NCBI GenBank assembly: GCA_946480655.1
Contig: CAMLKN010000008.1
Span: 1 to 21,553 of the forward strand
DNA: 21,553 bases
Direction: 5' to 3'
Source: an uncultured Devosia sp.
Lineage (GTDB): Bacteria > Pseudomonadota > Alphaproteobacteria > Rhizobiales > Devosiaceae
Of the stretch, positions 5,489 through 16,411 are shown piece by piece; position 1 is the first letter of the stretch, and each line of letters starts with the position of its first letter. The notes beneath the pieces were generated by a model that was given only the letters and a program-made list of their open reading frames with translations, did not search any database and was not told the DNA's origin. The position numbers and the translations under genes were made by a program.

Positions 5489-6103
5489 TCAGCCCTCATA
5501 CTTCTCCAGGAACGCCTCGATGCCGAGGGCGCGGAAGTCGGGCAGCGCCGCATGCAGCTGTTCGTGGCTCCAGTCCCACCACTTGAGCGCATCGAGGCGG
5601 CTGGCGACGTCGTCGGAAAACCGCTGCCGGATCGTGCGCGCCGGCACACCGACGGCAATGGCGAAGTCCGCGACGTCCTTGGTCACCACGGCATTGGAGC
5701 CGATGATCGCGCCATTGCCGATGGTCACGCCCGGCATGATCACCGCGCCATGCCCGATCCAGGTATCGTGGCCGATTTTGATGTCATTGCCGGCCCGCCA
5801 GTCAAAGAAGTCCCGGTCGTCCTCCTCGCCCTCGAAATACTGGGCCGACCGATAGGTGAAATGGTGGAGCGAAGCGCGCTCCATCGGGTGCATGGAGGCA
5901 TAGATGCGCACATTGGCGGCGATATTGGAGAACTTGCCGATCCTGGCATAGGCGATCTGGGTGCCGCCGACGCAATAGGAATAGTCGCCCATGCTGGACC
6001 AGGCGAGGTGGCAATGGGCGCCCACTTCCGTGTAGCGGCCCAGCGTCGACTGGGTGACCTTGGCGGTTTCGTGAATGAAGGGCGTTTCGCCGAGCTTTTT
6101 CAT
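5489..6103 (-). CDS. Phosphonate-locus hexapeptide-repeat transferase (XAT/CAT-like)
   Basis: A 204-residue left-handed beta-helix acyltransferase-type protein. Isoleucine-patch hexapeptides are clear (IGKFSNIAANVRIYA, then IKIGHDTWIGHGAVIMPGVT and IGNGAIIGSNAVVTKDV), followed by the VGVPARTIRQRF ending common to xenobiotic acetyltransferases. The HTF motif (residues near LHHFTYR) matches the chloramphenicol-acetyltransferase-like subgroup. I chose the ATG at 6103 because GAGG lies 5 bases upstream; the frame continues 94 codons further without a better site. It diverges from phnF across a spacer with PhnF-like operators, and relatives are known as a phosphonate-metabolism transferase family next to C-P lyase genes. 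I infer acetylation of an aminoalkylphosphonate or an intermediate, analogous in role to PhnO, but the substrate is not visible in sequence. Confidence 0.88.
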   Translation of the reverse strand: MKKLGETPFIHETAKVTQSTLGRYTEVGAHCHLAWSSMGDYSYCVGGTQIAYARIGKFSNIAANVRIYASMHPMERASLHHFTYRSAQYFEGEEDDRDFFDWRAGNDIKIGHDTWIGHGAVIMPGVTIGNGAIIGSNAVVTKDVADFAIAVGVPARTIRQRFSDDVASRLDALKWWDWSHEQLHAALPDFRALGIEAFLEKYEG

Positions 6104-6200: not shown

Positions 6201-6212
6201 TCATTCGAATGA
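6201..6212. promoter_or_regulatory. Putative PhnF operator 1
   Basis: A perfect 12-base palindrome, TCATTCGAATGA, in the 199-base spacer between the divergent transferase and phnF. It is identical to the cores at 6282-6293 and 12759-12770. It lies 97 bases upstream of the transferase start, on that gene's side of the spacer. GntR/HutC regulators such as PhnF bind short palindromes. Assignment to PhnF is inference from its position beside phnF and from recurrence only at phn promoters. Confidence 0.6.
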
Positions 6213-6243
6213 CCGGACGCATGCCTGTCGCAGACCTTTGCTA

Positions 6244-6277
6244 CCGTCATTCGAGTGTCACTGGCGCCGTCTACAAG
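6244..6277 (+). promoter_or_regulatory. Putative PHO box and -10 element of the phnF-M operon
   Basis: CCGTCATTCGAGTGTCAC (6244-6261) fits the PhoB target layout CTGTCA[TC]-N4-CTGTCA[TC]. The first half matches 6 of 7 positions. The second half, GTGTCAC, differs only at its first base if a final C is allowed. Ten bases further comes TACAAG (6272-6277), a 4 of 6 match to TATAAT; PhoB-dependent promoters typically keep about 10 bases between box and -10. Transcription would start around 6283-6286, inside operator 2. The region also resembles a degenerate copy of the TCATTCGAATGA palindrome, and the PHO-box reading explains where it deviates. Confidence 0.45.
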
Positions 6278-6280
6278 CAG

Positions 6281-6294
6281 CTCATTCGAATGAG
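6281..6294. promoter_or_regulatory. Putative PhnF operator 2
   Basis: A perfect 14-base palindrome, CTCATTCGAATGAG, 8 bases before the phnF ATG and at the predicted transcription start. A repressor here would block initiation of the whole phnF-M operon and give PhnF autoregulation. The right flank GTTGACG resembles the GTTAACG next to the site before phnC, so the two sites share 18 of 19 bases from TCATTC onward. Confidence 0.6.
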
Positions 6295-6302
6295 TTGACG
6301 AT

Positions 6303-7061
6303 ATGCGAAGCCAAGGACATTCCTGGGAAGAGACCCGGGACCGGATCAGCGAAGAAATTGCATCAGGCCGGCTGGCGCCCGACACTAGGCTGCCGTCCGA
6401 ACCTGAGCTCTGCGTGCTCTATGGCGTGCGCCGCCACTCATTGCGCAAGGCGCTGGCGGCCCTGGTCGCCGAAGGCAAGCTCAGGGTCGAACACGGCCGC
6501 GGCACCTTTGTCGAGCGCGCGCCCCTGCTCAATTATGTCATCGGCACGCGCACCCGCTGGCACGAAAACCTGATGAGCCAGGGCCTCACCGCCTCCGGCG
6601 AGACGCTGGCGGAGATGACTTTGCCGGCCAGCACCCGCGTGGCGGCCGCCCTCGGGATCGACAAGGACGCGCCGGTTCATGCCCGCTCCTGGCGCGGCTT
6701 CGCCAATGACCTGCCCATCAGCATGGGCTGGGCCTATCACGACGCCACGCGCTTCCCCGATCTGTCCGAACGCCGTCGCAATACGGGCTCGATCACCGAC
6801 GTCTACCGCTCCTACGGCATCACCGACTACCGGCGGCAGCGCACTACCGTCTTCACCCGCATCGCCTCGGAGAACGAGGCCGCCATGCTCATGCTCCGCC
6901 CGGGCCAATCGGTGCTGGTGGTGCAGAAGATCGACGCCGACCTCGACGGCCGGCCCATCGGCTTTTCCGAAGCCGTCTGGGCCGGTGACCGCGTGCAATT
7001 CACCTTCGAAACCGACCAGCCGACCATCACGACCACTGAGAGATCCCACGATGTTCAATGA
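6303..7061 (+). CDS. phnF: Phosphonate operon repressor PhnF (GntR/HutC family)
   Basis: A 252-residue transcription factor with an N-terminal winged helix (about residues 8-72; RLPSEPELCVLYGVRRHSLR holds the recognition helix) and a C-terminal UTRA ligand-binding domain (about 90-240). It aligns throughout with the pattern of E. coli PhnF (about 241 residues), including the HGRGTFV wing and the R-x-R-WHENLM-x-QG segment at the linker. It is the first gene of the C-P lyase operon and overlaps phnG by 11 bases. The ATG at 6303 leaves only a short leader and a weak ribosome site (GAG 8 bases upstream). It presumably represses its own operon, the divergent transferase and phnCDE through TCATTCGAATGA sites. 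The inducing ligand is unknown. Confidence 0.93.
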   Translation: MRSQGHSWEETRDRISEEIASGRLAPDTRLPSEPELCVLYGVRRHSLRKALAALVAEGKLRVEHGRGTFVERAPLLNYVIGTRTRWHENLMSQGLTASGETLAEMTLPASTRVAAALGIDKDAPVHARSWRGFANDLPISMGWAYHDATRFPDLSERRRNTGSITDVYRSYGITDYRRQRTTVFTRIASENEAAMLMLRPGQSVLVVQKIDADLDGRPIGFSEAVWAGDRVQFTFETDQPTITTTERSHDVQ

Positions 7062-7494
7062 AACCCCACCCGGCGGGGCCGATCACGCCCAGATGCTGGG
7101 CATTCTGGCCCGAGCCCGGCCCGAACACCTCAAGCGCCATGCCGAGGCCCTGCTGGCTGACCTGGGCGAGGTCACCGTCATCGCCAACCGCACAGGCCTT
7201 GTCATGGTGCCGATGCGCGACACCGTCGGCCAGGTGGATTTCCACCTCGGCGAAGTGCTGGTCAGCGAGGCGCAGATCACCAACCCGGCCGGCCATGTCG
7301 GCTACGGCATGGTGACCGGCCGCGACCTCGAGCGCGCCATGGCCATGGCCGTCGTGGACCTCAGCGTCGATGCACGCGGCATGGACGCGGCAACCGCCCA
7401 GTTCCTTGCCGGCGAAAAATCCCACATGGCGAAGGCCGATGAGATGCGCATGCGCCAGGTCGAGGCCACGCGTGTCGAAATGGAGACATTCTGA
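7051..7494 (+). CDS. phnG: C-P lyase core subunit PhnG
   Basis: A 147-residue protein, close to E. coli PhnG (150). It is part of the PhnGHIJ core; with PhnI, PhnH and PhnL it is implicated in transferring the phosphonate onto the ribose of ATP with release of adenine. The recognisable PhnG stretch is GYGMVTGRDLERAMAMAVVD (around residues 91-110), preceded by FHLGEVLVSEAQI. The frame is open further upstream, but the ATG at 7051 gives the right length and N-terminus and has GAGAGA upstream. It overlaps the end of phnF by 11 bases and shares one base with phnH (TGATG), so translation should be coupled. Confidence 0.93.
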   Translation: MFNETPPGGADHAQMLGILARARPEHLKRHAEALLADLGEVTVIANRTGLVMVPMRDTVGQVDFHLGEVLVSEAQITNPAGHVGYGMVTGRDLERAMAMAVVDLSVDARGMDAATAQFLAGEKSHMAKADEMRMRQVEATRVEMETF

Positions 7495-8024
7495 TGCTGA
7501 CCGTCGCTCCCCCCGACGCGCTCGAACTGCGCTCCAATGCCACCTTCGAGGCACTCATGTGGTCCCTGTCCCGCCCGGGCGATGTGCGCACCCTGCCCGA
7601 GGCCGGCTTTGAGGCCATCATCGAGACGCTTGTTGATATCGAATGCTGCGCCTTTGCCGATACCCCTGCCCTTCGCGAGCGGATCGTGGCGAGTGGTGCC
7701 ACGCTGGCCGATCGGATCGCCGTGGCCGACCACGTGTTTCTGAGCACCATCGAGAGCGCCGAGATCGCCGGGATCAACTGCGGTAGCGCTCTCTATCCCG
7801 ATGATGGCGCGACGTTGATGGTGGCGGTGCCTCATACGGGGCAGCGGCTGCGCCTCACCGGTCCGGGCATTTCCGGTTCAACCGAAGTTTCGCTGGCCCT
7901 CCAGCCGGGCTTCTGGGCCATGCGCGAGCTGCTCTGCTCCTATCCAGAGGGCTTTGACTGCTTCTTCGTCGATGGCACTTCCGTCATCGGCATTCCGCGC
8001 TCGACCAAGGTGGAGGTGCTCTGA
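7494..8024 (+). CDS. phnH: C-P lyase core subunit PhnH
   Basis: A 176-residue subunit of the C-P lyase core; E. coli PhnH has about 194 residues. Family features include the N-terminal FEALMWSLSRPGDV segment, the alternating strand region ALRERIVASGATLADRI (a short PLP-transferase-like fold without the lysine) and the LTGPGISGS turn near residue 125. It has no known catalytic role of its own and is thought to complete the PhnGHI step. It shares single bases with both phnG (7494) and phnI (8024), each a TGATG junction. Confidence 0.92.
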   Translation: MLTVAPPDALELRSNATFEALMWSLSRPGDVRTLPEAGFEAIIETLVDIECCAFADTPALRERIVASGATLADRIAVADHVFLSTIESAEIAGINCGSALYPDDGATLMVAVPHTGQRLRLTGPGISGSTEVSLALQPGFWAMRELLCSYPEGFDCFFVDGTSVIGIPRSTKVEVL

Positions 8025-9118
8025 TGGCCTATGTTGCAACCCGCGGTGGCGAAAGGGCCATCGAACAGGCCGAGCGGCTGTTCCGCCAGGACCTGGGTAC
8101 GATCGACGCAGCCCGCGTCGAAACCATCCGCTTGACCATGCCCTATCTCATCGATCGGGTGATGGGCGAAGCCTCGCTCTATGACGAGGAACTGGCCGCT
8201 CTGGCCCTGGCCCAGACCGGCGGTGAACTTTCGGAGGCGGTGCTGGTGCTGAGGGCCTGGCGCACCACCCAGCCGCGCCTCGCCATTGCCCGGCCGGTGC
8301 AACAGCACGAACTCCTGACGCAGCGCCGCATTTCGGCGGCCTTCAAGGATATTCCGGGCGGACAGATTCTCGGGCCGACGCTCGACTATTCGCATCGTGT
8401 GCTGGCAACCGACGTGCTCGAAGGCAGGCCCTTTGCGCCGCCGGCCGTGGACATGGCCGAGCAGCCGGCCCCGGCACGGCAGCCGTCGCTGGCCGATTGG
8501 CAGCGCCAGCAGGGCCTGGTGGCACCGACGGCCGCGTCCACCGTCGCGCCAGAGGACATTCCGGACCTGACGCGCGAACCGCTGCTGTTCCCGGCCTCGC
8601 GGGCGCATCGTCTGCAGAGCCTGGCGCGCGCTGAAACCGGCGGCGTGCTGGCCCTCGGCTATGCCGCCCAGCGCGGTTATGGCAACGCCCATCCGACGGT
8701 CAACGAATTGCGGCTGGCCGAGGCCGAAGTGGTGGTGCGCCATCCGCGCGGGACCGAATTTTCCGCCGGTCGCGTCCGGGTCAGCCAGGCTGAAGTCACG
8801 TCCAAGGAAAAGGGCGGCTATCTCGAACTGGGCTTTGCCGCCACCTTCGGCTGGAACGAGGTCAAGGTGATTGCCGCAGCGACGCTGGATCTCAATTCGG
8901 CCGAAGCCCCGGTCGGCTCCGCCGTGCACGAGGAATTCTACCTCTACCACACCGAAAGCGTCGAGGCCTCGGGCTTCTGCATTCATTTCAAGCTGCCCCA
9001 CTACGTCACTTTCCAGTCGATCCTGGACGCCATGCGCGACGCCAAGGCCAAGAAGGCCGCCGCCGAAGCCAAGGGCGAAGTCTTTGTCGCCGAGCCCGAA
9101 GAGGAACCCGTCATATGA
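8024..9118 (+). CDS. phnI: C-P lyase subunit PhnI
   Basis: A 364-residue protein (E. coli PhnI 354). PhnI catalyses attack of phosphonate on the C1 of ATP's ribose, releasing adenine, and can act as a nucleosidase when alone. Clear family segments are YVATRGGERAIEQA at the start, DRVM, RRISAAFKDIPGGQILGPTLDYSHR (about residues 105-130), GYAAQRGYG and, near the end, FKLPHYVTFQ. The two histidines His321 and His326 match the metal-binding pair of E. coli PhnI. The segment that in E. coli reads like GYGLVFG-SERKAMAMALVD is much altered here (LELGFAATFGWNEVKVIAAA). The C-terminal tail is rich in Ala, Lys and Glu. The start shares one base with the phnH stop; the end overlaps phnJ by 4 bases. Confidence 0.93.
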   Translation: MAYVATRGGERAIEQAERLFRQDLGTIDAARVETIRLTMPYLIDRVMGEASLYDEELAALALAQTGGELSEAVLVLRAWRTTQPRLAIARPVQQHELLTQRRISAAFKDIPGGQILGPTLDYSHRVLATDVLEGRPFAPPAVDMAEQPAPARQPSLADWQRQQGLVAPTAASTVAPEDIPDLTREPLLFPASRAHRLQSLARAETGGVLALGYAAQRGYGNAHPTVNELRLAEAEVVVRHPRGTEFSAGRVRVSQAEVTSKEKGGYLELGFAATFGWNEVKVIAAATLDLNSAEAPVGSAVHEEFYLYHTESVEASGFCIHFKLPHYVTFQSILDAMRDAKAKKAAAEAKGEVFVAEPEEEPVI

Positions 9119-10029
9119 GCCTTGCAACCCTGACCAAAGACTGGGCGGCGACCAGCTATGGCTTCCTCGATGCCTCGGCCAAGCGCGAGCTGCGCCGGAA
9201 AATGCTCAAGGCCATCGCAGTGCCCGGCTGCCAGATGCCCTATGCCAGCCGCGAAGTGCCCATGGCGCGCGGCTGGGGCACCGGCGGCCTGCAGGTAACG
9301 CTGACGCTGGTAAACCCGTCGTCGGTGGTGAAGGTCATCGACCAGGGCGCCGATGACGGCGTCAACGCCGCCTCGATCCGGCGCTTCATCTCCCGCGTCT
9401 CGGGCGCCTCGGAGACCTGGGACACGCTCGATGCCACCATCGTGCAGTCACGCCATCGCGTGCCCGAAGAGATCATGCGCGAGGACCAGGTTCTGGTGCT
9501 GCAGGTGCCCAATCCCGAACCGCTGCGCGGGGTCGAGCCCAACATCTCCATCGCCCGGCAGATGCATGCCGATGCCGACTACGGCAAGCTCTGGCTCACG
9601 CTTTACGAACAGATCGTGCGCAAGGGCCGCATCATGCAGGGCGCCGCCTATCCCTCCATGGTCAATGGGCGCCACGTCATGACCCCCTCGCCCATTCCGC
9701 GCTGGGATGTCCCCAAGCTCAACATGGCGAGGCACCTGACCATTCTCTCGGCCGGGCGTGAAAAGCGCCTCTATGCCGTGCCGCCCTATACGCGGGTGGA
9801 ACCGCTGGTCTTCTCCGATCGCCCCTACCTGGTGGAAGACCATGCCGATCTCACCTGCCGCCGCTCGGGCGTCTCGGGCTTCTTCATGAACGAGTTGCCG
9901 CAGGATGGCGGCGGGTCGGTCTTCGAAGTCAGCGACAGCAACCTGGGCATCAAGGCCATCAACAGCACCGAGGGCGCGCCGACCGCCATCGGCGAAACCT
10001 GGTATCGCAACGGGGAGTTCTCGGCATGA
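9115..10029 (+). CDS. phnJ: PhnJ-family C-P lyase subunit lacking the catalytic/Fe-S cysteines
   Basis: A 304-residue homologue of the radical-SAM C-P lyase PhnJ (E. coli 281). The backbone is well kept: FLDASAKRELRR, KAIAVPGCQMP with Gly38 at the place of the E. coli glycyl radical Gly32, GWGTGG, KVIDQGADD, Q-x-RHR-x-PEE, QVPNPEPLR, PSPIPRWDVPKLNM and AGREKRLYAVPPYTRVE. In E. coli, Cys241, Cys244 and Cys266 hold the 4Fe-4S cluster and Cys272 is the thiyl residue. Here the matching segment has Cys248, Ser251, Val272 and Gly278 (CRRSG, then FEVSDSNLG). The whole protein has two cysteines (39 and 248). The C-terminus is about 17 residues longer than in E. coli after this point. ATGA overlaps join it to phnI and phnK. 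It is not a frameshift: neither other frame restores the motif. Canonical C-P bond cleavage is therefore doubtful for this protein alone. Confidence 0.9.
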   Translation: MSLATLTKDWAATSYGFLDASAKRELRRKMLKAIAVPGCQMPYASREVPMARGWGTGGLQVTLTLVNPSSVVKVIDQGADDGVNAASIRRFISRVSGASETWDTLDATIVQSRHRVPEEIMREDQVLVLQVPNPEPLRGVEPNISIARQMHADADYGKLWLTLYEQIVRKGRIMQGAAYPSMVNGRHVMTPSPIPRWDVPKLNMARHLTILSAGREKRLYAVPPYTRVEPLVFSDRPYLVEDHADLTCRRSGVSGFFMNELPQDGGGSVFEVSDSNLGIKAINSTEGAPTAIGETWYRNGEFSA

Positions 10030-10847
10030 ACCTCGATCTTGGACGCCCGGCGCTGGAGCGCGCCGCCCCGCGGCTGATGCGGGCTGAACCCCTCCTCAGG
10101 ATGCGCGACATCTCGAAACGCTTCGGCGACGTCCGCGCCCTCCGCCATGTCGATGCGACCGTCTATCCCGGCGAGGTCATGGGCATTGTGGGCGAAAGCG
10201 GCTCGGGCAAGTCGACGCTGCTGCGCATGATGAACCTTGAAGACACCCCGGATAGCGGCGACTACGCGCTGCGCCTGCCAGGCCGGGAGGACCAGAACCT
10301 GTTCGACCTCGCCCGCTATGAGCGCCGCATGCTTTGCGCCCGCCATATCGGCATCGTCTATCAGAATCCGCATCTGGGCCTCTTGATGAAGCATTCCTCG
10401 AGCGGCAATGTCGCCGAGCGCCTGCTGATTGCCGGCGAACGCAGCTTCGATGTGCTGCGGTCCAAGGCGCGCGAAGCCCTTGATGCCTCCGAGTTTCCGC
10501 TCGACCGCATGGATGCTCGCCCGATCGAGCTTTCCGGCGGCATGCAGCAGCGCGTGCAACTGGCCAAGGCTATTGCGCTCGAACCGGCCTTGCTTCTGCT
10601 CGACGAGCCGACCACCGGCCTCGACGTTTCGGTGCAGGCCCTGGTGCTCGATACTCTGAAAAGGCTCCAGCGCGACCGCAGGATCACCATGGTTCTGGTC
10701 AGCCACGACCTTGGCGTCATCCGCACCATGGCCGACCGGGTCATGGTCATGCGTCATGGCGAAGTGGTGGAACAGGGCCTGGCCGACCAGGTGTTCCAGG
10801 ACCCCCAGCACCCCTACACCCAGCAACTCGTCCACGCCAAGCTCTGA
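10026..10847 (+). CDS. phnK: C-P lyase ABC-type ATPase PhnK
   Basis: A 273-residue ATP-binding protein with no membrane partner; in E. coli, PhnK docks on the PhnGHIJ core through PhnJ and is needed for activity. It has Walker A GESGSGKST (from residue 56), signature LSGGMQQR, Walker B LLLLDEPT, D-loop GLDVSVQA and H-loop VSHDLG; the end HPYTQQLVHA is typical of PhnK and peptide-importer ATPases. It carries about 20 extra N-terminal residues compared with E. coli PhnK (252). The start overlaps the phnJ stop by 4 bases; a downstream ATG (MRAEPLL) would give a length nearer the family norm. Confidence 0.93.
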   Translation: MNLDLGRPALERAAPRLMRAEPLLRMRDISKRFGDVRALRHVDATVYPGEVMGIVGESGSGKSTLLRMMNLEDTPDSGDYALRLPGREDQNLFDLARYERRMLCARHIGIVYQNPHLGLLMKHSSSGNVAERLLIAGERSFDVLRSKAREALDASEFPLDRMDARPIELSGGMQQRVQLAKAIALEPALLLLDEPTTGLDVSVQALVLDTLKRLQRDRRITMVLVSHDLGVIRTMADRVMVMRHGEVVEQGLADQVFQDPQHPYTQQLVHAKL

Positions 10848-10857
10848 GGTCAGACCG

Positions 10858-11589
10858 ATGACGACCACGCCCCTCCTGCGCGTCGAGGGTCTCACCAAGA
10901 CCTTCCGCATGTATCATCTGGACAGCATGCTGCACGCCTTCGAAGGCGTCAGCTTCGATCTTCACGAAGGCGAGTTCCTGCTGCTGCGCGGCCATAATGG
11001 CGCCGGCAAGTCGACGCTGCTGCGCACCATCTGGCGCAGCTACCTGCCGGTCGGCGGCCATGTCTTCTATCGCTCCAGCCACGGCGAGATTGATCTCGCC
11101 AACGCCGCCGATGTCGACATTGCCCTGCTCCGCCGCGAGGAAATCGGCTTCGTCACCCAGTTCCTCAATGCCCGCCCGCGCGTTGCGGCTCAGGACATTG
11201 TCGCCGAACCGCTGCTCTTGGCCGGTCAGTCCCAGGCCAAGGCGCTGGACCAGGCCCGGCACTGGCTTGACCAGTTCGGCGTGCGACCCGAACTCTGGCG
11301 CGCCTATCCGTCGACCTTTTCGGGCGGCGAACAGCAGAAGGTGAACCTGGCCCGGGCGCTGATCCTGCCGCAGCGCCTGCTGCTGCTCGATGAGCCCACC
11401 GCGTCGCTCGACGTCGGCGCGCGCGCCGCACTGGTGCGCCGCCTGGCCGACCTCAAGAGCCAGGGCGTCGCCATCATCGGTGTGTTCCATCATCCGGGTG
11501 ACGTGGCCGACCTCATCGACCGCGAAATCAACCTCAATACCAGGGTCGTTGCCGACACTATCCGGGAGGACGAGCATGTGGCTCTCTGA
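10858..11589 (+). CDS. phnL: C-P lyase ABC-type ATPase PhnL
   Basis: A 243-residue ATP-binding protein (E. coli PhnL 226) that works with PhnGHI and, in the E. coli complex, stacks on PhnK. It shows Walker A GHNGAGKST, the PhnL-specific VTQFLNARPRVAAQDIV region, signature FSGGEQQKVNLARAL, Walker B LLLLDEPTASLD and H-loop GVFHH. The frame is open upstream into phnK, but the ATG at 10858 gives the family N-terminus (LLRVEGLTKTF) and has AGGT upstream. It begins 10 bases after phnK and overlaps phnM by 14 bases. Confidence 0.93.
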   Translation: MTTTPLLRVEGLTKTFRMYHLDSMLHAFEGVSFDLHEGEFLLLRGHNGAGKSTLLRTIWRSYLPVGGHVFYRSSHGEIDLANAADVDIALLRREEIGFVTQFLNARPRVAAQDIVAEPLLLAGQSQAKALDQARHWLDQFGVRPELWRAYPSTFSGGEQQKVNLARALILPQRLLLLDEPTASLDVGARAALVRRLADLKSQGVAIIGVFHHPGDVADLIDREINLNTRVVADTIREDEHVAL

Positions 11590-12775
11590 TTTCCGCATCG
11601 TCCTGGCGGACCGCGTCATCGAGCGCGGCGCCCTGCGCATTGAGGACGGGCTGATCGCCGAGATCAGCGAAGCGCCGGTGCCGCAGGCCGACGTCGAAGG
11701 TCACGGCCTCTTGCTGCTGGCAGGCATGATCGACATGCATGGCGACATGATCGAGCGCGAGATGGAACCGCGCCCCGGCGTACGCATGCCGATGGACATG
11801 GGTCTGCGCGATCTGGACATGAAGCTGGCCACCGCCGGAATCACCACGGCCTATGCTTCCCTGTCTTTCGCCCCCGGTTCGACCTACGGGCATATGCGAT
11901 CTTACGAATATACCAGCGAACTGATCCGCGCTGTCGTCGCGGCCCGGCCCCGGCTGCTCATCGACCACCGCGTGCATGCGCGGTTCGAGGTGACCTTCCC
12001 CGCCGCTCTCTCGGTGGTCAAGGAACTGGTGGGCGAGGGTTCGGTGGACCTCGTATCGCTATGCGACCACACGCCTGGCCAGGGCCAGTATCGTGATCTC
12101 GACTTGCAGGCGGCCAACCTCTCCAGGAACAAGGGCATCTCGCTCGACGCGGCGCACGAAAACCTGCAACAGCGCATCCGCGACCGGCGGGAGACCGCGG
12201 GCGACATGACCGCGACCCTGCGCGCCATCACACAATATTGCGCCCTGCATGGCGTGCCGGTCGCCAGCCACGACGACGACACGGTCGAGAAGGTCACGCT
12301 GATGGACCAGCTCGGCGCCAATATCAGCGAGTTCCCCGTGACCCTCGAGGCGGCGCAGGAAGCGCGTCGTCGCGGCATGCTGACGGCCATGGGCGCACCC
12401 AATGCCCTGCGTGGCCAGTCCTATTCAGGCAATCTCTCGGCCCGTGACGCTCACACTGCCGGCGTTCTGGATCTGCTGGCTGCCGACTATCACCCCTCGG
12501 CCATGCTGCCGGCAGTGCTGGTTCTGGCCAAGAGTGACCCGGAGGGGCTGGCAGGCGCATCACGCCTGACCTCCCTGAACCCGGCCAAGGCACTCGGTCT
12601 CGAAGACCGCGGCGAGATCCGCGTCGGCCTGCGCGCCGATCTGATGGTCGCATCGGAGACAGGTGTCGGCCAGGTACACGCGACCCTTTCGCGCGGCCGC
12701 TTCGTCCATGCTGATGGCCGGCTCGATCTAGCAGGTGCAGGGCAACGTCACGCACATGTCATTCGAATGAGTTAA
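11576..12775 (+). CDS. phnM: PhnM, ribose 1-phosphonate 5-triphosphate diphosphatase
   Basis: A 399-residue amidohydrolase-superfamily enzyme (E. coli PhnM 378) that removes pyrophosphate from the ribose phosphonate 5-triphosphate made by PhnGHI-L. Metal-site and active-site segments include GMIDMHGDMIE (around residue 50), ITTAYASLSF, LCDHTPGQGQY, VASHDDDTVE, MGAPNALRGQSYSGN, LLAADY and LNPAKALGLEDRGEI. These follow E. coli PhnM closely. The frame is open upstream, but the ATG at 11576 gives the family start. It overlaps the end of phnL by 14 bases. Its last codons (for Val-Ile-Arg-Met) contain the TCATTCGAATGA palindrome in front of phnC, so the coding sequence doubles as a likely operator. 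Confidence 0.94.
   Translation: MWLSDFRIVLADRVIERGALRIEDGLIAEISEAPVPQADVEGHGLLLLAGMIDMHGDMIEREMEPRPGVRMPMDMGLRDLDMKLATAGITTAYASLSFAPGSTYGHMRSYEYTSELIRAVVAARPRLLIDHRVHARFEVTFPAALSVVKELVGEGSVDLVSLCDHTPGQGQYRDLDLQAANLSRNKGISLDAAHENLQQRIRDRRETAGDMTATLRAITQYCALHGVPVASHDDDTVEKVTLMDQLGANISEFPVTLEAAQEARRRGMLTAMGAPNALRGQSYSGNLSARDAHTAGVLDLLAADYHPSAMLPAVLVLAKSDPEGLAGASRLTSLNPAKALGLEDRGEIRVGLRADLMVASETGVGQVHATLSRGRFVHADGRLDLAGAGQRHAHVIRMS
12759..12770. promoter_or_regulatory. Putative PhnF operator 3, inside the 3' end of phnM
   Basis: A perfect TCATTCGAATGA palindrome, identical to the two upstream of phnF. It ends 5 bases before the end of the phnM stop codon and 59 bases before the phnC ATG. It sits just upstream of a candidate phnC promoter, which suggests that PhnF controls the transporter genes separately from the enzyme genes. 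Confidence 0.58.
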
Positions 12776-12829: not shown

Positions 12830-13657
12830 ATGCTGGAACTGAAGAATGTCACCAAGCGCTTTGGCGACACCGTTGCGGTTAACAATGTGTCAACAAATTT
12901 CGCCCCCGGGCAGATGGTTGGCGTCATCGGCCGGTCCGGTGCGGGCAAGTCCACCCTGCTGCGGCTGATCAACCGGCTGGCCACAGCGGACGAGGGACTC
13001 ATCACCTCCGGCGATCTCAATATCGGAACCTTGAACGGCAATGCCCTGCGCGCCTGGCGCGCCCGCTGCGCCATGATCTTCCAGCAGTTCAACCTGGTTA
13101 ACCGCCTGGATGTACTGACGAATGTGCTTATTGGTCGGATCGGCAATGCCGGCACTCTGCCCGTGATGTTCAAGCATTTTTCGGCAACGGATCGCGCCAA
13201 TGCCGCAATGGCCCTCGACCGGCTCGACCTGCTCTCGCAGGCCCTGCAGCGCGCCGACACGCTCTCAGGCGGCCAGCAGCAACGCGTCGCCATCGCCCGG
13301 GCCCTGATGCAGAAACCCAGCATCATTCTCGCTGACGAGCCCATCGCCTCGCTCGATCCGCGCAATGCCAGGCTGGTGATGGAAGCCCTGCGCACCATCA
13401 ACCAACAGGACAAGATCACCGTCATCACCAATCTGCACACGCTGGACGCGGCCCGCGCCTATTGCGACCGCATCATCGGCATGGCGCATGGGCACATCGT
13501 CTTCGACGGCAAGCCCGAGCAGCTGACCAGCGCAATCATCCAGCAGATCTATGGTGACGACCCAGAAACAGCAGTGGACGAGAGCCTGACCTCGACCATT
13601 GCTGCCACCGGCACGGCAATCCAGGCCGGAAGACGACAGATGGAGACGGCGCACTAG
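12830..13657 (+). CDS. phnC: Phosphonate ABC transporter ATP-binding protein PhnC
   Basis: A 275-residue ATPase energising phosphonate uptake through PhnE. It has Walker [10 protein letters not shown] (around residue 35), the PhnC-type [22 protein letters not shown] segment, signature [15 protein letters not shown], Walker [14 protein letters not shown] and an H-loop histidine in TNLHT. The tail beyond residue 250 is longer than usual and low in conservation signals. GGGGTGG lies a few bases before the ATG. It is separated from phnM by 54 bases holding a likely promoter, and phnD follows after 31 bases. Confidence 0.94.
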
Positions 13658-13688
13658 ACGCCGCTCGAAACCCCAACGGAGCACATCC

Positions 13689-14609
13689 ATGCTTACCCTG
13701 ACGCGCCGTGGCCTCGTGGCCGCGCTGGTTTCGCTCGCCCTGATTTCCCCGGCCCTCAGCCAGGACTGGCGCGAACAATATCCGGAACTGACTATCGGCA
13801 TTTCCTCGGGCGAGAACGAGACCGATGCCATTGCCCGCAATCAGCCCTATGCGGACTATCTCAGCCGCGAACTGGGTGTCCCGGTGAAGATGATCCGCGG
13901 CACGGACTATGCGGCCGTGATCGAAGCCATGCGCGCCGGCCACGTCCAGATCGCCTCGGTCGGTCCGGCCGCCTATGCCCTGGCCCGCAAGATCATGGGT
14001 GAGGACATCGCTCCGGTGGCGGTAACCTTGGATAATGAAGGCAATCTCGGCTACCACTCCGTGATCGCCGTGCGCGCCGACAGTCCTTACCAGAGCCTCG
14101 AGGACATCAAGGGCAAGTCCTTCGCCTTTGCCGACCCGAACTCCACGTCGGGCTACGCTGTGCCCTCCTACTACCTCGCAACCGAACTCGGTACCACGGC
14201 CGACGAATACTTCAGCGAAGTCGCCTTCTCCGGAGGACATGAGCAGAGCGTCATGGCGCTCGTCAACGGCACGTTCGAGGCCGTTGCCACCCACTGGCGC
14301 AACGAGACCGCCGGCAATATCCAGAACATGGAGAAGAAGGGCCTGATCCCGGCCGGATCGACCCGCATCATCTGGACCTCGCCCGTCATCCCGAACACGC
14401 CGGTGATGATCAACACCACCTTGCCGCAGGAGCTCCAGGACGAGTTCAAGGCCGCCCTGATGGCTTTCCCGGAAAAGGATCCTGAGGGCTTCGCGACCTA
14501 CAGCAATGGCACGTCGAGCGGCTATGTCGAGGCCAAGCACGAAGACTATCTCGACGTGGTCGCCATCACCGAATTCAACGCCGAACAGCGTCGCAAGAAC
14601 GGCAACTGA
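13689..14609 (+). CDS. phnD: Phosphonate-binding periplasmic protein PhnD
   Basis: A 306-residue solute-binding protein for the PhnCDE importer. A Sec signal (MLTLTRRGLVAALVSLALIS, cleavage near PALS-Q) precedes the mature domain. The DPNSTSGYAVPSYYL segment is the Ser-Thr-Ser-Gly motif with which PhnD proteins bind the phosphonate group. The frame is open about 30 codons upstream, but the ATG at 13689 is preferred because it begins the signal peptide and has GGAG 7 bases upstream. A strong hairpin follows the stop, which would help raise PhnD levels above those of the permeases. Confidence 0.94.
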   Translation: MLTLTRRGLVAALVSLALISPALSQDWREQYPELTIGISSGENETDAIARNQPYADYLSRELGVPVKMIRGTDYAAVIEAMRAGHVQIASVGPAAYALARKIMGEDIAPVAVTLDNEGNLGYHSVIAVRADSPYQSLEDIKGKSFAFADPNSTSGYAVPSYYLATELGTTADEYFSEVAFSGGHEQSVMALVNGTFEAVATHWRNETAGNIQNMEKKGLIPAGSTRIIWTSPVIPNTPVMINTTLPQELQDEFKAALMAFPEKDPEGFATYSNGTSSGYVEAKHEDYLDVVAITEFNAEQRRKNGN

Positions 14610-14620
14610 TGTCCCTGACT

Positions 14621-14652
14621 GGCCGGTGCGCGCTGGCGCGCCGGCCTCTTTT
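14621..14652 (+). terminator. Hairpin with T-rich tail between phnD and phnE1
   Basis: Bases 14621-14631 pair with 14636-14646 to form an 11-base stem (10 Watson-Crick pairs and one G-T) around a GCTG loop, followed by TCTTTT. This is the form of an intrinsic terminator or attenuator. It lies entirely between the phnD stop and the preferred phnE1 start, so it could end part of the transcription or protect the phnD message from 3' decay. Confidence 0.6.
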
Positions 14653-14665
14653 CCGTGAGGCGCAC

Positions 14666-15577
14666 GTGTCCACTCTTTCCCACAGCAATGGCCGACCGAG
14701 CTCGACGACGCGCCAAGAGCGTCTCACCTCATTCGAGAACCGCTACCGACAGCAGCAGTTCACCCGCCGGAACTGGACCCTGCTCTATGGTGCACTCTTC
14801 GCCACGGCCCTTGCCGGTTCGGTGGCGGTCAGCGACTTCAGCTTTCCCGGCCTCTTCGAGGGCCTACCCATGGCCTGGAACTACATTGCGGGCACGCTGC
14901 CAAAGCTGACCCTTGAGAACCTGTGGGGCGACCTCGCCGAATGGTATTGGGGCCTCAGGTTCTGGACGCGGCTGCTCGTCGAAACCATTCTCATGGGCTT
15001 TGTCGGCACGGTCCTCGGCGGCATCCTGGCCCTTGCCCTCTGTTTCCCCGCCTCGCGCAACCTCGTGGACCGCAGCGGCATCTATTTCGCGGCACGCCGG
15101 ACGCTCGAATTCTGCCGCACGGTGCCTGAACTGGTGTTTGCGCTGATCTTCGTCTTTGCCTTCGGCCTCGGGCCCTTTGCCGGCGTGCTGGCAATCGCCG
15201 TGCATACGGCCGGCTCCTTGGGCAAGCTCTTTGCCGAGGTGAACGAGAATGTCGATCCGCGCCCCATCGAAGGCGTGCGGGCGGCCGGTGGCAACTGGCT
15301 GATGATCATGCGCCTCGGCGTCGTGCCGCAGGCCCTGCCCAATTATGCCAGCTACCTCCTGCTGCGCTTCGAGATCAACGTGCGCGGCGCTTCGGCCCTC
15401 GGCCTGGTCGGCGCCGGGGGCATTGGCGAAGACCTCTACGTGGCCATTCGCCAGTTCGAGTACACCGACATTTCAGCCATCATGCTGCTGCTGATCCTCA
15501 CCACTTCGGTGATCGACATCACCTGCGAGACCATCCGCCATCGCCTCATCGGCCATAACCTGACGCAGAGCGCCTGA
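14666..15577 (+). CDS. phnE: Phosphonate ABC transporter permease PhnE (first copy)
   Basis: A 303-residue inner-membrane permease. Several hydrophobic helices are visible, among them LLYGALFATALAGSVAV, LLVETILMGFVGTVLGGILA and VFALIFVFAFGLGPFAGVLA. The cytoplasmic loop VDPRPIEGVRAAGGNWLMIM carries the EAA-like contact with PhnC, and VGAGGIGEDLYVAI near the C-terminus is typical of PhnE. I prefer the GTG at 14666 because GTGAGG lies 5 bases upstream. An ATG at 14609 overlapping the phnD stop would add 19 residues but would be encoded through the hairpin. phnE2 follows after 3 bases, and the two probably form a heterodimer. Confidence 0.91.
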   Translation: MSTLSHSNGRPSSTTRQERLTSFENRYRQQQFTRRNWTLLYGALFATALAGSVAVSDFSFPGLFEGLPMAWNYIAGTLPKLTLENLWGDLAEWYWGLRFWTRLLVETILMGFVGTVLGGILALALCFPASRNLVDRSGIYFAARRTLEFCRTVPELVFALIFVFAFGLGPFAGVLAIAVHTAGSLGKLFAEVNENVDPRPIEGVRAAGGNWLMIMRLGVVPQALPNYASYLLLRFEINVRGASALGLVGAGGIGEDLYVAIRQFEYTDISAIMLLLILTTSVIDITCETIRHRLIGHNLTQSA

Positions 15578-15580
15578 CTC

Positions 15581-16411
15581 ATGACCGCCATTCCACATGC
15601 CGATACCGCGCGCCTGAAGCGTTCGCATCCTGAAATCTTTGCCCGCCCGCTGCCGGAACGGCTGCGCGACTGGAGCCTCTGGCTTGGGTTCATCGTGCTA
15701 TTCGGGTTTGGTCTCTGGTGGATCGACGCCTCGCCGATGCGGATCATCAATGGGCTCAACAAGCTCGGACTGCTTGTGACGTTGATGATCCCGCCGTGGC
15801 CAGGCGATGGACTGTGGGACTACACACTGGCCATGGCGGAGACCATTGCCATGGCCTTTCTGGGCACGCTGATCGCTTTCGTAGTCGCGCTGCCGCTGGG
15901 TTTTCTCGGCGCCAAGAACATCGTGCCCAACTGGTTGTTCCACTTCGGCATTCGTCGCTTCTTCGATGCTTTCCGTGGCATTGACGGGCTGGTCTGGGCA
16001 TTGATCTTCGTTTCCGCCGTGGGTCTGGGTCCCTTCGCGGGCGTTCTTGCCATCGCCGTGGGCGACGTCATGGTCTTTGGCAAACTCTTCGCAGAAGCAA
16101 TTGAAAATGTTGACAGAAAACCAGTCGAAGGCGTACGCGCTTCAGGCGGGGCGGACATGCATGTAGTGCGCCTCGGCGTGCTGCCGCAGGTCTTTCCCGT
16201 GATGATGAGCCACGTGCTCTACTTCTTCGAATCCAACGTGCGCTCGGCAACCATACTGGGCATCGTCGGGGCTGGTGGCATCGGGCTGCAACTGTCCGAC
16301 CGCATCCGCATCAACAACTGGCAGGAAGCCGCGTTCATCATTCTCATGATCCTCGTGACTGTCGCCGTGATCGACGCCATTTCGCGCCGGATCCGTGCGA
16401 GACTGATCTGA
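15581..16411 (+). CDS. phnE: Phosphonate ABC transporter permease PhnE (second copy)
   Basis: A 276-residue permease paralogous to the preceding gene. Shared features are the ALIFVSAVGLGPFAGVLAIAV helix, the loop NVDRKPVEGVRASGG, RLGVLPQVFPVMMSHVLYFFE, and VGAGGIGLQLSDRI near the end. The N-terminal HPEIFARPLPERL matches the PhnE2 subgroup found next to PhnE1 in many alphaproteobacteria. It ends at a TGA at 16409-16411 and is the last recognisable phn gene; phnN and phnP do not follow. I see no convincing terminator in the 49 bases after it. Confidence 0.92.
   Translation: MTAIPHADTARLKRSHPEIFARPLPERLRDWSLWLGFIVLFGFGLWWIDASPMRIINGLNKLGLLVTLMIPPWPGDGLWDYTLAMAETIAMAFLGTLIAFVVALPLGFLGAKNIVPNWLFHFGIRRFFDAFRGIDGLVWALIFVSAVGLGPFAGVLAIAVGDVMVFGKLFAEAIENVDRKPVEGVRASGGADMHVVRLGVLPQVFPVMMSHVLYFFESNVRSATILGIVGAGGIGLQLSDRIRINNWQEAAFIILMILVTVAVIDAISRRIRARLI

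What the first reader, a model, noticed from the sequence alone, without database searches (positions are those of the whole stretch)
9841..10029. PhnJ without its iron-sulfur and thiyl cysteines
The gene is in the correct operon position and PhnJ-like throughout, including the radical glycine (Gly38). Yet the residues aligned with E. coli Cys244, Cys266 and Cys272 are Ser251, Val272 and Gly278; only the Cys241 equivalent (Cys248) remains. A three-cysteine radical-SAM cluster cannot form in the usual way. The complete, tightly overlapping operon around it argues against simple decay. Possibilities are a PhnJ variant with other chemistry or another cofactor, a structural PhnJ that needs a second catalytic PhnJ elsewhere in the genome, or a complex that stops at the ribose-phosphonate stage. 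The alignment uses the E. coli sequence from memory, and I cannot check whether such variants have already been catalogued.
Basis: partly seen in the sequence, partly recalled or inferred. Interest (0 to 1): 0.92.

Follow-up and report, generated by a model that had tools for sequence, protein, structure and literature searches.

The report
Phosphonate lyase missing its iron-sulfur cysteines
A complete bacterial machine for breaking down phosphonates carries a key subunit that has lost the cysteines thought to hold its reactive iron-sulfur cluster, and hundreds of relatives show the same loss, so this looks like a stable alternative form of the machine and not a broken gene.

Summary
The window's phnJ (9115-10029, probably Devosia) keeps Cys248 (E. 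coli Cys241) but has Ser251, Val272 and Gly278 where E. coli has Cys244, Cys266 and Cys272. It is not a read error or decay. None of those three cysteines is present in 332 of 332 listed homologues; 41 also lack the fourth, and 29 contain no cysteine at all. The 39 Cys-less PhnJ in the tree form one group, and PhnG, H, I, K, L and M each split likewise. The clade keeps the PhnI-PhnJ metal/ribose-phosphate site of the E. coli complex. In 32 of 32 genomes of a targeted set it is the only intact PhnJ, so no canonical partner is needed. The gene is under purifying selection.

Best reading: a derived C-P-lyase-type complex that still ribosylates phosphonates but has given up the [4Fe-4S]/thiyl step. 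I think it most likely cleaves at the PhnI-PhnJ metal site by a cluster-independent route. The main rival: it only activates substrates, and enzymes such as PhnX, which co-occurs with it in Chloroflexota, cut the bond. Substrate and chemistry are untested. Ten searches of an open-access library listed no description.

The parts
9115..10029 (+). phnJ, 304 aa, Cys-less PhnJ
   Evidence: PF06007 377.7 bits; AlphaFold model mean pLDDT 86.6 matches six E. coli PhnJ chains with TM 0.84-0.85 (query) and 0.91-0.93 (target), 47-48% identity
9856..9858 (+). Cys248 codon (E. coli Cys241), the only one of the four cysteines left; not Cys in 41 of 332 relatives
9865..9867 (+). Ser251 codon in place of Cys244; Ser or Thr in 329 of 332 relatives
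9928..9930 (+). Val272 codon in place of Cys266
9946..9948 (+). Gly278 codon in place of the proposed thiyl Cys272
9226..9228 (+). Gly38 codon (E. coli Gly32, proposed radical glycine), kept in 332 of 332 relatives although the thiyl cysteine is gone
9451..9456 (+). Arg113-His114 codons (E. coli Arg107-His108), contacts to PRcP in the E. coli structure
8024..9118 (+). phnI, 364 aa; keeps the metal-site histidines (E. coli His219/328/333 = His223/321/326)
   Evidence: PF05861 355.8 bits
8978..8980 (+). PhnI Cys319 codon, clade-specific cysteine two residues before the metal-site His321 (36 of 38 in the clade, 0 of 69 canonical)
7042..7494 (+). phnG
   Evidence: PF06754 79.5 bits
7494..8024 (+). 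phnH
   Evidence: PF05845 100.1 bits
10026..10847 (+). phnK, ABC ATPase; below the PhnK equivalog cut-off (224.4 of 302.85 bits)
10858..11589 (+). phnL, ABC ATPase; below the PhnL equivalog cut-off (224.8 of 256.3 bits)
11576..12775 (+). phnM, triphosphate diphosphatase; above the equivalog cut-offs
   Evidence: NF011988 513.4 of 369 bits, TIGR02318 413.7 of 390.55 bits
12830..13657 (+). phnC
   Evidence: TIGR02315 325 bits, above cut-off
13689..14609 (+). phnD
   Evidence: TIGR03431 289.1 bits, above cut-off
14609..15577 (+). phnE1 (start uncertain)
   Evidence: TIGR01097 259.6 bits, above cut-off
15581..16411 (+). phnE2
   Evidence: TIGR01097 284.1 bits, above cut-off
6303..7061 (+). phnF-like GntR/UTRA regulator
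   Evidence: PF00392 and PF07702
5489..6103 (-). divergent hexapeptide acyltransferase of phosphonate loci
   Evidence: TIGR03308 309.4 of 201.65 bits
6201..6293 (+). three copies of the palindrome TCATTCGAATGA (6201 exact, 6247 two mismatches, 6282 exact), possible operator in front of phnF

Best explanation
The window encodes one member of a large clade of C-P-lyase-type complexes (here PhnGHIJKLM with PhnCDE import and a PhnF-type regulator) whose PhnJ has lost the [4Fe-4S]/thiyl cysteine site. Shown: the loss, its conservation, the parallel divergence of all seven subunits, the retained (predicted) fold, the retained PhnI-PhnJ metal/PRcP site residues, and occurrence without a canonical PhnJ. 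Inferred: PhnI with PhnG, H and L still transfers a phosphonate onto ribose from ATP, PhnM trims the triphosphate, and PhnKL open the core. Committed guess: at the composite PhnI-PhnJ metal site the P-substituent bond is then broken without a PhnJ-bound iron-sulfur cluster, for example by attack of the ribose 2'-OH on phosphorus assisted by the metal and PhnJ His114, giving PRcP. That would favour substrates whose carbon (or other) group leaves easily, and would make the step less sensitive to oxygen.
For: Cysteines: 39 of 39 clade loci have none of Cys244/266/272 and 71 of 71 canonical loci have all four, with no intermediates; 332 of 332 listed homologues likewise lack the three; 29 of 332 have no cysteine anywhere and 323 of 332 at most two, too few for a PhnJ-held [4Fe-4S]. 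Active site: PhnJ Arg107, His108 and Gln124 are present in 39 of 39 clade and 71 of 71 canonical rows, loop residues Gly47, Gly49 and Thr50 too (Trp48 is Phe in 5 canonical rows); PhnI His328 and His333 in 38 of 38 and 69 of 69, His219 in 38 of 38 and 68 of 69, the last a gap. Their role in binding PRcP and zinc is from PMC9947105. Cys-less PhnJ on one side of one branch, 100/98 support; the same for I, K, L and M (97-100) and, less firmly, H and G (94). Purifying selection: dN/dS 0.05-0.17 over 15 pairs. Sole intact PhnJ in 32 of 32 genomes tested (all 32 typed Cys-less; G512 has an extra fragment). Bond breaking rather than mere ribosylation: in L018, L113 and L117, which lie in one subclade, phnM is followed at once by DUF1045 and phnN, genes of the PRcP-to-PRPP part, and 19 of 32 Cys-less-only genomes have neither PhnX nor PhnA above the curated cut-off (PhnZ and PalA not searched). 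Physiology, indirect: Synechococcus sp. WC101 has a Cys-less PhnJ (P0124); Synechococcus 'Bprime' has an operon phnCDEGHIJKLM in the gene order of the Thermus Cys-less operon, and Synechococcus JA-2-3B'a and OS-B' are reported to use phosphonates (passages in PMC5955973, and PMC9600594). That these names mean one strain, and that WC101 is its close relative, is recalled or assumed; the taxonomy does not tell.
Against: No activity data exist for any member that I could read. Unactivated C-P bonds are not expected to break without a radical or strong activation. Most clade loci lack the PRcP-processing genes nearby: PhnN 5 of 39, DUF1045 4 of 39, PhnP 0 of 39, against 20, 17 and 8 of 50 canonical loci; but the 7 canonical Chloroflexota loci lack them too. 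None of the six non-alphaproteobacterial genomes of the first 30 has PhnN above cut-off. PhnX tracks the clade (12 of 29 genomes against 0 of 32 comparison genomes), which fits a pathway where another enzyme cuts the bond. The PhnJ of Synechococcus OS-B' itself was not seen.
Confidence: 0.4

Rival explanations
1. Activation only. The Cys-less complex and PhnM convert an imported phosphonate (perhaps an ester or N-methylated 2-aminoethylphosphonate derivative) to a ribosylated or otherwise processed form, PhnJ is a structural and substrate-binding subunit, and C-P cleavage is done by other enzymes such as a PbfC/D-type oxidase plus PhnX.
For: PhnX and a TIGR03364 FAD oxidase follow the clade operon in L024 and, at least by similarity to the L024 genes, in L025, L173 and L175, PhnX alone in L168; both also lie by the cluster, on the other strand, in Rhizobium L020. 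PhnX above cut-off in 12 of 29 Cys-less-only genomes that are not Alphaproteobacteria against 0 of 32 comparison genomes (7 Chloroflexota with a canonical PhnJ, 25 Chloroflexota or relatives of G024 with no PhnJ match, taken from the head of the lists; Fisher p 3e-5, kinship not corrected). PbfB-D act on N-methyl-AEP to give phosphonoacetaldehyde for PhnX, PbfB with strong evidence and PbfC/D proven (PMC10590968 passages).
Against: 19 of 32 Cys-less-only genomes have neither PhnX nor PhnA above cut-off, among them G528, whose phnJ lies on a 4.67 Mb contig. Against canonical-PhnJ Chloroflexota alone the PhnX contrast is weak (12 of 29 against 0 of 7, p 0.07). Ribosylation before PhnX has no purpose known to me.
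Confidence: 0.34
2. Non-phosphonate substrate. The complex acts on a P-O, P-N or P-S compound (for example a sugar or glycerol phosphoester), where release of the group needs no radical.
For: Some clade loci have sugar-type (3 of 39) or oligopeptide-type (4 of 39) solute-binding proteins, or PfkB kinases (4), xylose-isomerase-like barrels (4) or an APH kinase (1) nearby; of these the canonical loci have one oligopeptide type in 50 and none of the others.
Against: 26 of 39 clade loci carry a PhnD-type and 26 a PhnE-type gene, and the window has a full PhnCDEE set above curated cut-offs. Ordinary phosphatases would do such chemistry more cheaply.
Confidence: 0.14
3. Cluster held in another way: a [4Fe-4S] or other iron centre is bound through PhnI Cys319 or other subunits, and the radical chemistry goes on.
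For: PhnI gains a cysteine two residues before the metal-site histidine in 36 of 38 clade members (0 of 69 canonical). Gly32 is kept throughout.
Against: At the thresholds (at least 90% in the clade, at most 12% in canonical rows) this is the only gained cysteine in the seven subunits. The proposed thiyl residue is also gone, and the former cluster region has Glu271 and Lys280 in 39 of 39 (Glu in 0 and Lys in 5 of 71 canonical).
Confidence: 0.08
4. Pseudogene, sequencing error, or structural PhnJ that borrows a canonical PhnJ from elsewhere in the genome.
For: 20 of the first 30 genomes also hold a canonical PhnJ, and one more (G010) has a second PhnJ in two fragments that I did not type.
Against: dN/dS well below 1; same loss in 332 of 332 listed homologues; 32 of 32 genomes have no intact canonical copy; partner subunits diverge separately from canonical ones.
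Confidence: 0.04

Closest known systems
E. [quoted passage not shown]
   Same: Same subunits in the same order, same PhnJ fold, same PhnI-PhnJ metal-site and PRcP-contact residues.
   Different: No Cys244, Cys266 or Cys272 in PhnJ; clade-specific changes in the partner subunits, for example PhnI Val326 to Cys; fewer PhnN, PhnP or DUF1045 genes nearby.
Canonical PhnJ paralogues in the same alphaproteobacterial genomes (L081-L100)
   Same: PF06007 PhnJ in the same genomes, beside PhnI and PhnK in most.
   Different: All four cysteines present in 20 of 20; on the other side of a 100/98-supported branch (L084 and L086 were left out of that tree).
Mobile phnGHIJKL clusters on Proteus and Martelella plasmids (L120, L121)
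   Same: Another divergent C-P-lyase-type operon.
   Different: The reverse change: all four cysteines kept, but PhnJ His108 is Gln; no phnM annotated by the cluster; iron-type ABC importer.

Membership tests
PhnJ family (PF06007) | Match to the Pfam PhnJ model above its gathering score | tested here: met
   377.7 bits, cut-off 25
PhnJ family (PF06007) | PhnJ fold | tested here: met
   AlphaFold model against six E. coli PhnJ chains, TM 0.84-0.85/0.91-0.93, rmsd 1.9-2.6
Radical-SAM-type C-P lyase (catalytic PhnJ) | Cys241/244/266 ligands of the [4Fe-4S] cluster | tested here: not met
   C, S, V in the window; the three together in 0 of 39 clade loci and 0 of 332 homologues
Radical-SAM-type C-P lyase (catalytic PhnJ) | Thiyl residue Cys272 | tested here: not met
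   Gly278 in the window; Cys in 0 of 39 and 0 of 332
Radical-SAM-type C-P lyase (catalytic PhnJ) | Radical glycine Gly32 | tested here: met
   Gly38 present; kept in 332 of 332, so its conservation does not depend on the thiyl cysteine
Radical-SAM-type C-P lyase (catalytic PhnJ) | SAM-dependent C-P bond cleavage to PRcP and R-H | not testable with these tools
   needs biochemistry
C-P lyase complex PhnGHIJKLM | All seven core genes in one operon | tested here: met
   phnG-H-I-J-K-L-M at 7042-12775 in one direction
C-P lyase complex PhnGHIJKLM | PhnI metal-site histidines and PhnJ Arg107/His108/Gln124 PRcP contacts | tested here: met
   present in 38 of 38 PhnI and 39 of 39 PhnJ of the clade
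C-P lyase complex PhnGHIJKLM | Growth on phosphonates dependent on the operon | not testable with these tools
   no data on the window strain; indirect reports on Synechococcus only

The most novel reading that the evidence does not exclude
An iron-sulfur-free, oxygen-tolerant C-P lyase: the Cys-less complexes cleave real C-P bonds, possibly methylphosphonate to methane, at the PhnI-PhnJ metal site. That would mean the accepted radical chemistry of PhnJ is either not universal or not located where it is drawn.
Probability: 0.26. Interest if true: 0.95.

Novelty: new variant of a known kind. Interest (0 to 1): 0.78.

Why it matters
Where and how C-P lyase breaks its bond is unsettled: PMC7916636 notes about 30 A between Gly32 and Cys272 (passage), and PMC9947105 places the PRcP-binding metal site 31 A from Gly32 in the open state. 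This clade is a natural experiment that separates the two sites, since evolution kept one and removed the other. Testing one Cys-less operon in a phn-deleted laboratory E. coli would show whether the metal site alone suffices. It also matters for annotation: phnJ genes are counted in environmental surveys of phosphonate use (passages), and these sequences are named C-P lyase in databases.

Tried and rejected
Sequencing error, decay and need of a second PhnJ: rejected. Cluster held by PhnJ with other cysteines: rejected, 323 of 332 relatives have at most two cysteines in the protein and 29 have none. Absence of PhnN/PhnP/DUF1045 as proof that no PRcP is made: dropped, because canonical Chloroflexota clusters lack them too, and all 24 alphaproteobacterial genomes of the first 30 have a DUF1045 match at 2e-57 or better. 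PhnP: the curated model gave no match over cut-off in 30 genomes (G030 came close, 265.3 of 272.25 bits), so it does not discriminate. Pho box in the window: 7 matches against 4.7 expected, a number reached in 18 of 100 shuffles; one match (6244-6261) lies in front of phnF but overlaps the palindrome there; not evidence. Viral contigs: 9 pattern matches, none a relative of PhnJ.

Rows left out: L101-L110 (re-fetches of the Cys-less copies); L084 and L086 (canonical) from the PhnJ tree, for no recorded reason, so 108 of 110 rows; canonical rows cut to at most 30 per gene; 27 loci chosen by hand for, 48 K and L rows used after a length filter. L043 is cut at a contig start and lacks its N-terminus. 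The Deinococcus, Meiothermus and Synechococcus proteins were typed but are not in the tree. Flanks differ in length and the E-value limits per gene were set by hand, so neighbour absences are only 'not found nearby'. The comparison genomes were taken from the head of the lists, not at random.

Full report
What is there. The window carries a complete C-P-lyase-type operon: a GntR/UTRA regulator (6303-7061), phnG-H-I-J-K-L-M (7042-12775, mostly overlapping or abutting), phnC-D-E-E (12830-16411) and a divergent hexapeptide acyltransferase (5489-6103). PhnM, PhnC, PhnD and both PhnE pass curated NCBIfam cut-offs; PhnK and PhnL fall below theirs (224.4 of 302.85 and 224.8 of 256.3 bits). The closest named proteins and contigs are from Devosia, so the source is probably Devosia (inference).

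The observation. PhnJ is 304 aa and matches PF06007 with 377.7 bits. Aligned with E. coli PhnJ, the residues at 241/244/266/272 are Cys, Ser, Val, Gly.

How general it is. In one search, 110 of 110 loci were typed: 71 have all four cysteines and 39 have none of the last three, with nothing in between. In one search, all 332 proteins from three homologue searches (each lists only its best 120 of thousands of hits, all three queries Cys-less, so this is a census of the clade and not of PhnJ at large) lack Cys244, Cys266 and Cys272. Position 241 is Cys in 291, Asp in 34 and Ser in 7; position 244 is Ser or Thr in 329. 29 of 332 have no cysteine at all and 152 have one; nine have three or more. 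In a sample of 151 Chloroflexota genomes 11 have PhnJ, four Cys-less and seven canonical, none with both.

One derived clade. IQ-TREE on 108 PhnJ puts the 39 Cys-less rows on one side of one branch (100/98, all 200 bootstrap trees). FastTree trees of PhnI, K, L and M (97-100) and of H and G (94, below that tool's star) split the same way (canonical rows subsampled). When PhnK and PhnL are used to root each other, the Cys-less members form one group in each (100/99) and sit inside the canonical diversity (92/83 and 92/77). So the cysteines were probably lost once from an Fe-S-bearing ancestor; the rooting support is moderate. Tree members come from Alphaproteobacteria, Chloroflexota and Thermus. 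Cys-less proteins named Meiothermus, Deinococcus and Synechococcus sp. WC101 turned up and were typed but not put in the tree. The 'Bacteroidetes' MAG L025 nests among Anaerolineae and is probably misbinned; L029 has no phylum in its title.

Selection and fold. Among six close phnJ genes (15 pairs) dN/dS is 0.05-0.17 overall; for residues 235-284 it is 0.11-0.28 in the 14 pairs that could be computed. The AlphaFold model (mean pLDDT 86.6) keeps the E. coli fold, with the blocks covering residues 241-300 at 90 or more.

What is kept. In the E. coli structures a metal site at the PhnI-PhnJ interface binds PRcP through PhnI His328 and His333 and PhnJ Arg107, His108, Gln124 and loop 47-50, with PhnI His219 joining in the open state (PMC9947105, sections 9 and 10 read). 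Arg107, His108 and Gln124 are present in 39 of 39 clade and 71 of 71 canonical rows; Gly47, Gly49 and Thr50 too; Trp48 is Phe in 5 canonical rows; PhnI His328 and His333 are present in all 38 and 69 rows, His219 in 38 of 38 and 68 of 69 (one gap). Gly32, Arg107, His108 and Gln124 are present in 332 of 332. His108 is not universal in the wider family: two mobile clusters with all four cysteines have Gln there. Gly32 is conserved even where the thiyl cysteine is gone. Clade-specific changes include PhnI Val326 to Cys, two residues before His328 (36 of 38; 0 of 69 canonical), PhnI Glu252 to Gln (35 of 38; 0 of 69), and Glu271 and Lys280 in PhnJ where the cysteine site was (39 of 39; Glu in 0 and Lys in 5 of 71 canonical).

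Does it need another PhnJ? 20 of the first 30 genomes (all Alphaproteobacteria) also hold a canonical PhnJ; one (G010) has a second PhnJ in two pieces, not typed; nine have only the Cys-less one. In a targeted set of 32 genomes, these nine among them, the Cys-less PhnJ is the only intact one in 32 of 32; G512 has an extra fragment (cysteines typed). Several are MAGs and may be incomplete, but G528 carries it on a 4.67 Mb contig.

Context. Among 39 clade and 50 canonical loci: PhnN 5 and 20, DUF1045 4 and 17, PhnP 0 and 8, PfkB 4 and 0, sugar-isomerase-like barrel 4 and 0, PhnX 3 and 0, TIGR03364 oxidase 3 and 0, hexapeptide acyltransferase 13 and 20, PhnM 35 and 44. Fisher p is 0.005, 0.011, 0.008, 0.03, 0.03 and 0.08 for the first six and 0.66 for the acyltransferase (kinship and number of tests not corrected). 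Canonical Chloroflexota loci also lack PhnN, PhnP and DUF1045. Genome-wide, PhnN is above cut-off in 23 of the first 30 genomes and in none of the six that are not Alphaproteobacteria. In L018, L113 and L117, members of one subclade, the Cys-less operon runs phnM-DUF1045-phnN with touching genes, which suggests that its product enters the PRcP-to-PRPP route. That DUF1045 acts as the cyclic phosphodiesterase is recalled and inferred. PhnX is above cut-off in 13 of 32 Cys-less-only genomes (12 of the 29 that are not Alphaproteobacteria) and in 0 of 32 comparison genomes, seven of these with a canonical PhnJ. PhnA is above cut-off in 0 of 32. So PhnX is linked to the clade, but 19 of 32 do without both; PhnZ and PalA were not searched.

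Mechanism. The pathway as printed is PhnI/GHL ribosylation, PhnM, PhnJ radical cleavage, PhnP, PhnN (PMC10574752 passages). Removing the cluster and thiyl residue leaves ribosylation, PhnM and the metal site. I commit, at about 0.4, to cluster-independent cleavage at that site; activation without cleavage by PhnJ is the main rival at about a third. An indirect physiological hint: the PhnJ of Synechococcus sp. WC101 (P0124) is Cys-less and 83% identical to the Thermus pVV8 protein; Synechococcus 'Bprime' has phnC-D-E-G-H-I-J-K-L-M with a predicted Pho-type site (PMC1906773 passage), the gene order of pVV8; Synechococcus JA-2-3Ba(2-13) is listed among cyanobacteria that grow on phosphonates as sole phosphorus source and release methane (PMC5955973 passage); and OS-A, which lacks the operon that OS-B' has, cannot grow in the dark from phosphonates (PMC9600594 passage). 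That Bprime, OS-B' and JA-2-3B'a(2-13) are one strain is recalled; that WC101 comes from a hot spring and is its close relative is my assumption, which no paper in the library and no taxonomy entry settled. The primary paper (Gomez-Garcia 2011) is not held. PMC1906773 also says that the phn genes of Bprime are split into two operons, so a second PhnJ there is not excluded. On rechecking this link I lowered the best explanation from 0.42 to 0.40 and the novel case from 0.28 to 0.26, and raised two rivals by 0.01 each.

Novelty. Ten searches of the open-access library listed no paper that, from title and abstract start, describes Cys-less PhnJ; of the many listed papers I read passages of only some. 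Those that discuss the four cysteines treat them as conserved or functional (PMC11978286; PMC12413358; PMC7916636; PMC9947105). Most subscription papers are not in that library, so an earlier description cannot be excluded. It is a new variant of a known kind.

Noticed in passing
L120 8998-9810 (Proteus mirabilis plasmid pPM35-1) and L121 8995-9840 (Martelella plasmid): A third, mobile phnGHIJKL type with all four PhnJ cysteines but Gln in place of the PRcP-contacting His108, no phnM annotated by the cluster, and an iron-type ABC importer in front; PhnJ of similar distance on Klebsiella and Morganella plasmids, not fetched.
   Followed up: partly
window 6201-6293: The palindrome TCATTCGAATGA occurs three times (two exact) in front of phnF and, with up to two mismatches, in front of phnF in 17 of 20 alphaproteobacterial clade loci checked including the window; a possible PhnF operator.
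   Followed up: partly
NZ_CP069355.1 (Microvirga sp. VF16 plasmid; L117): One plasmid has nine places matching PhnJ; L117 alone holds phnK, phnL, DUF1045 and phnN of a second cluster near the Cys-less one.
   Followed up: no
G020 contig 79 (genome behind L020, Rhizobium miluonense): Six PhnJ matches in one genome, three long ones within about 42 kb of one contig.
   Followed up: no
L021 and L022 (Alphaproteobacteria), L172 and L178 (Chloroflexota): Clade clusters with phnGHIJKL but no phnM found nearby; L021 and L178 have a xylose-isomerase-like barrel gene by the cluster.
   Followed up: no
P0020: A MAG PhnJ of 356 aa with a long internal duplication, probably an assembly artefact.
   Followed up: no
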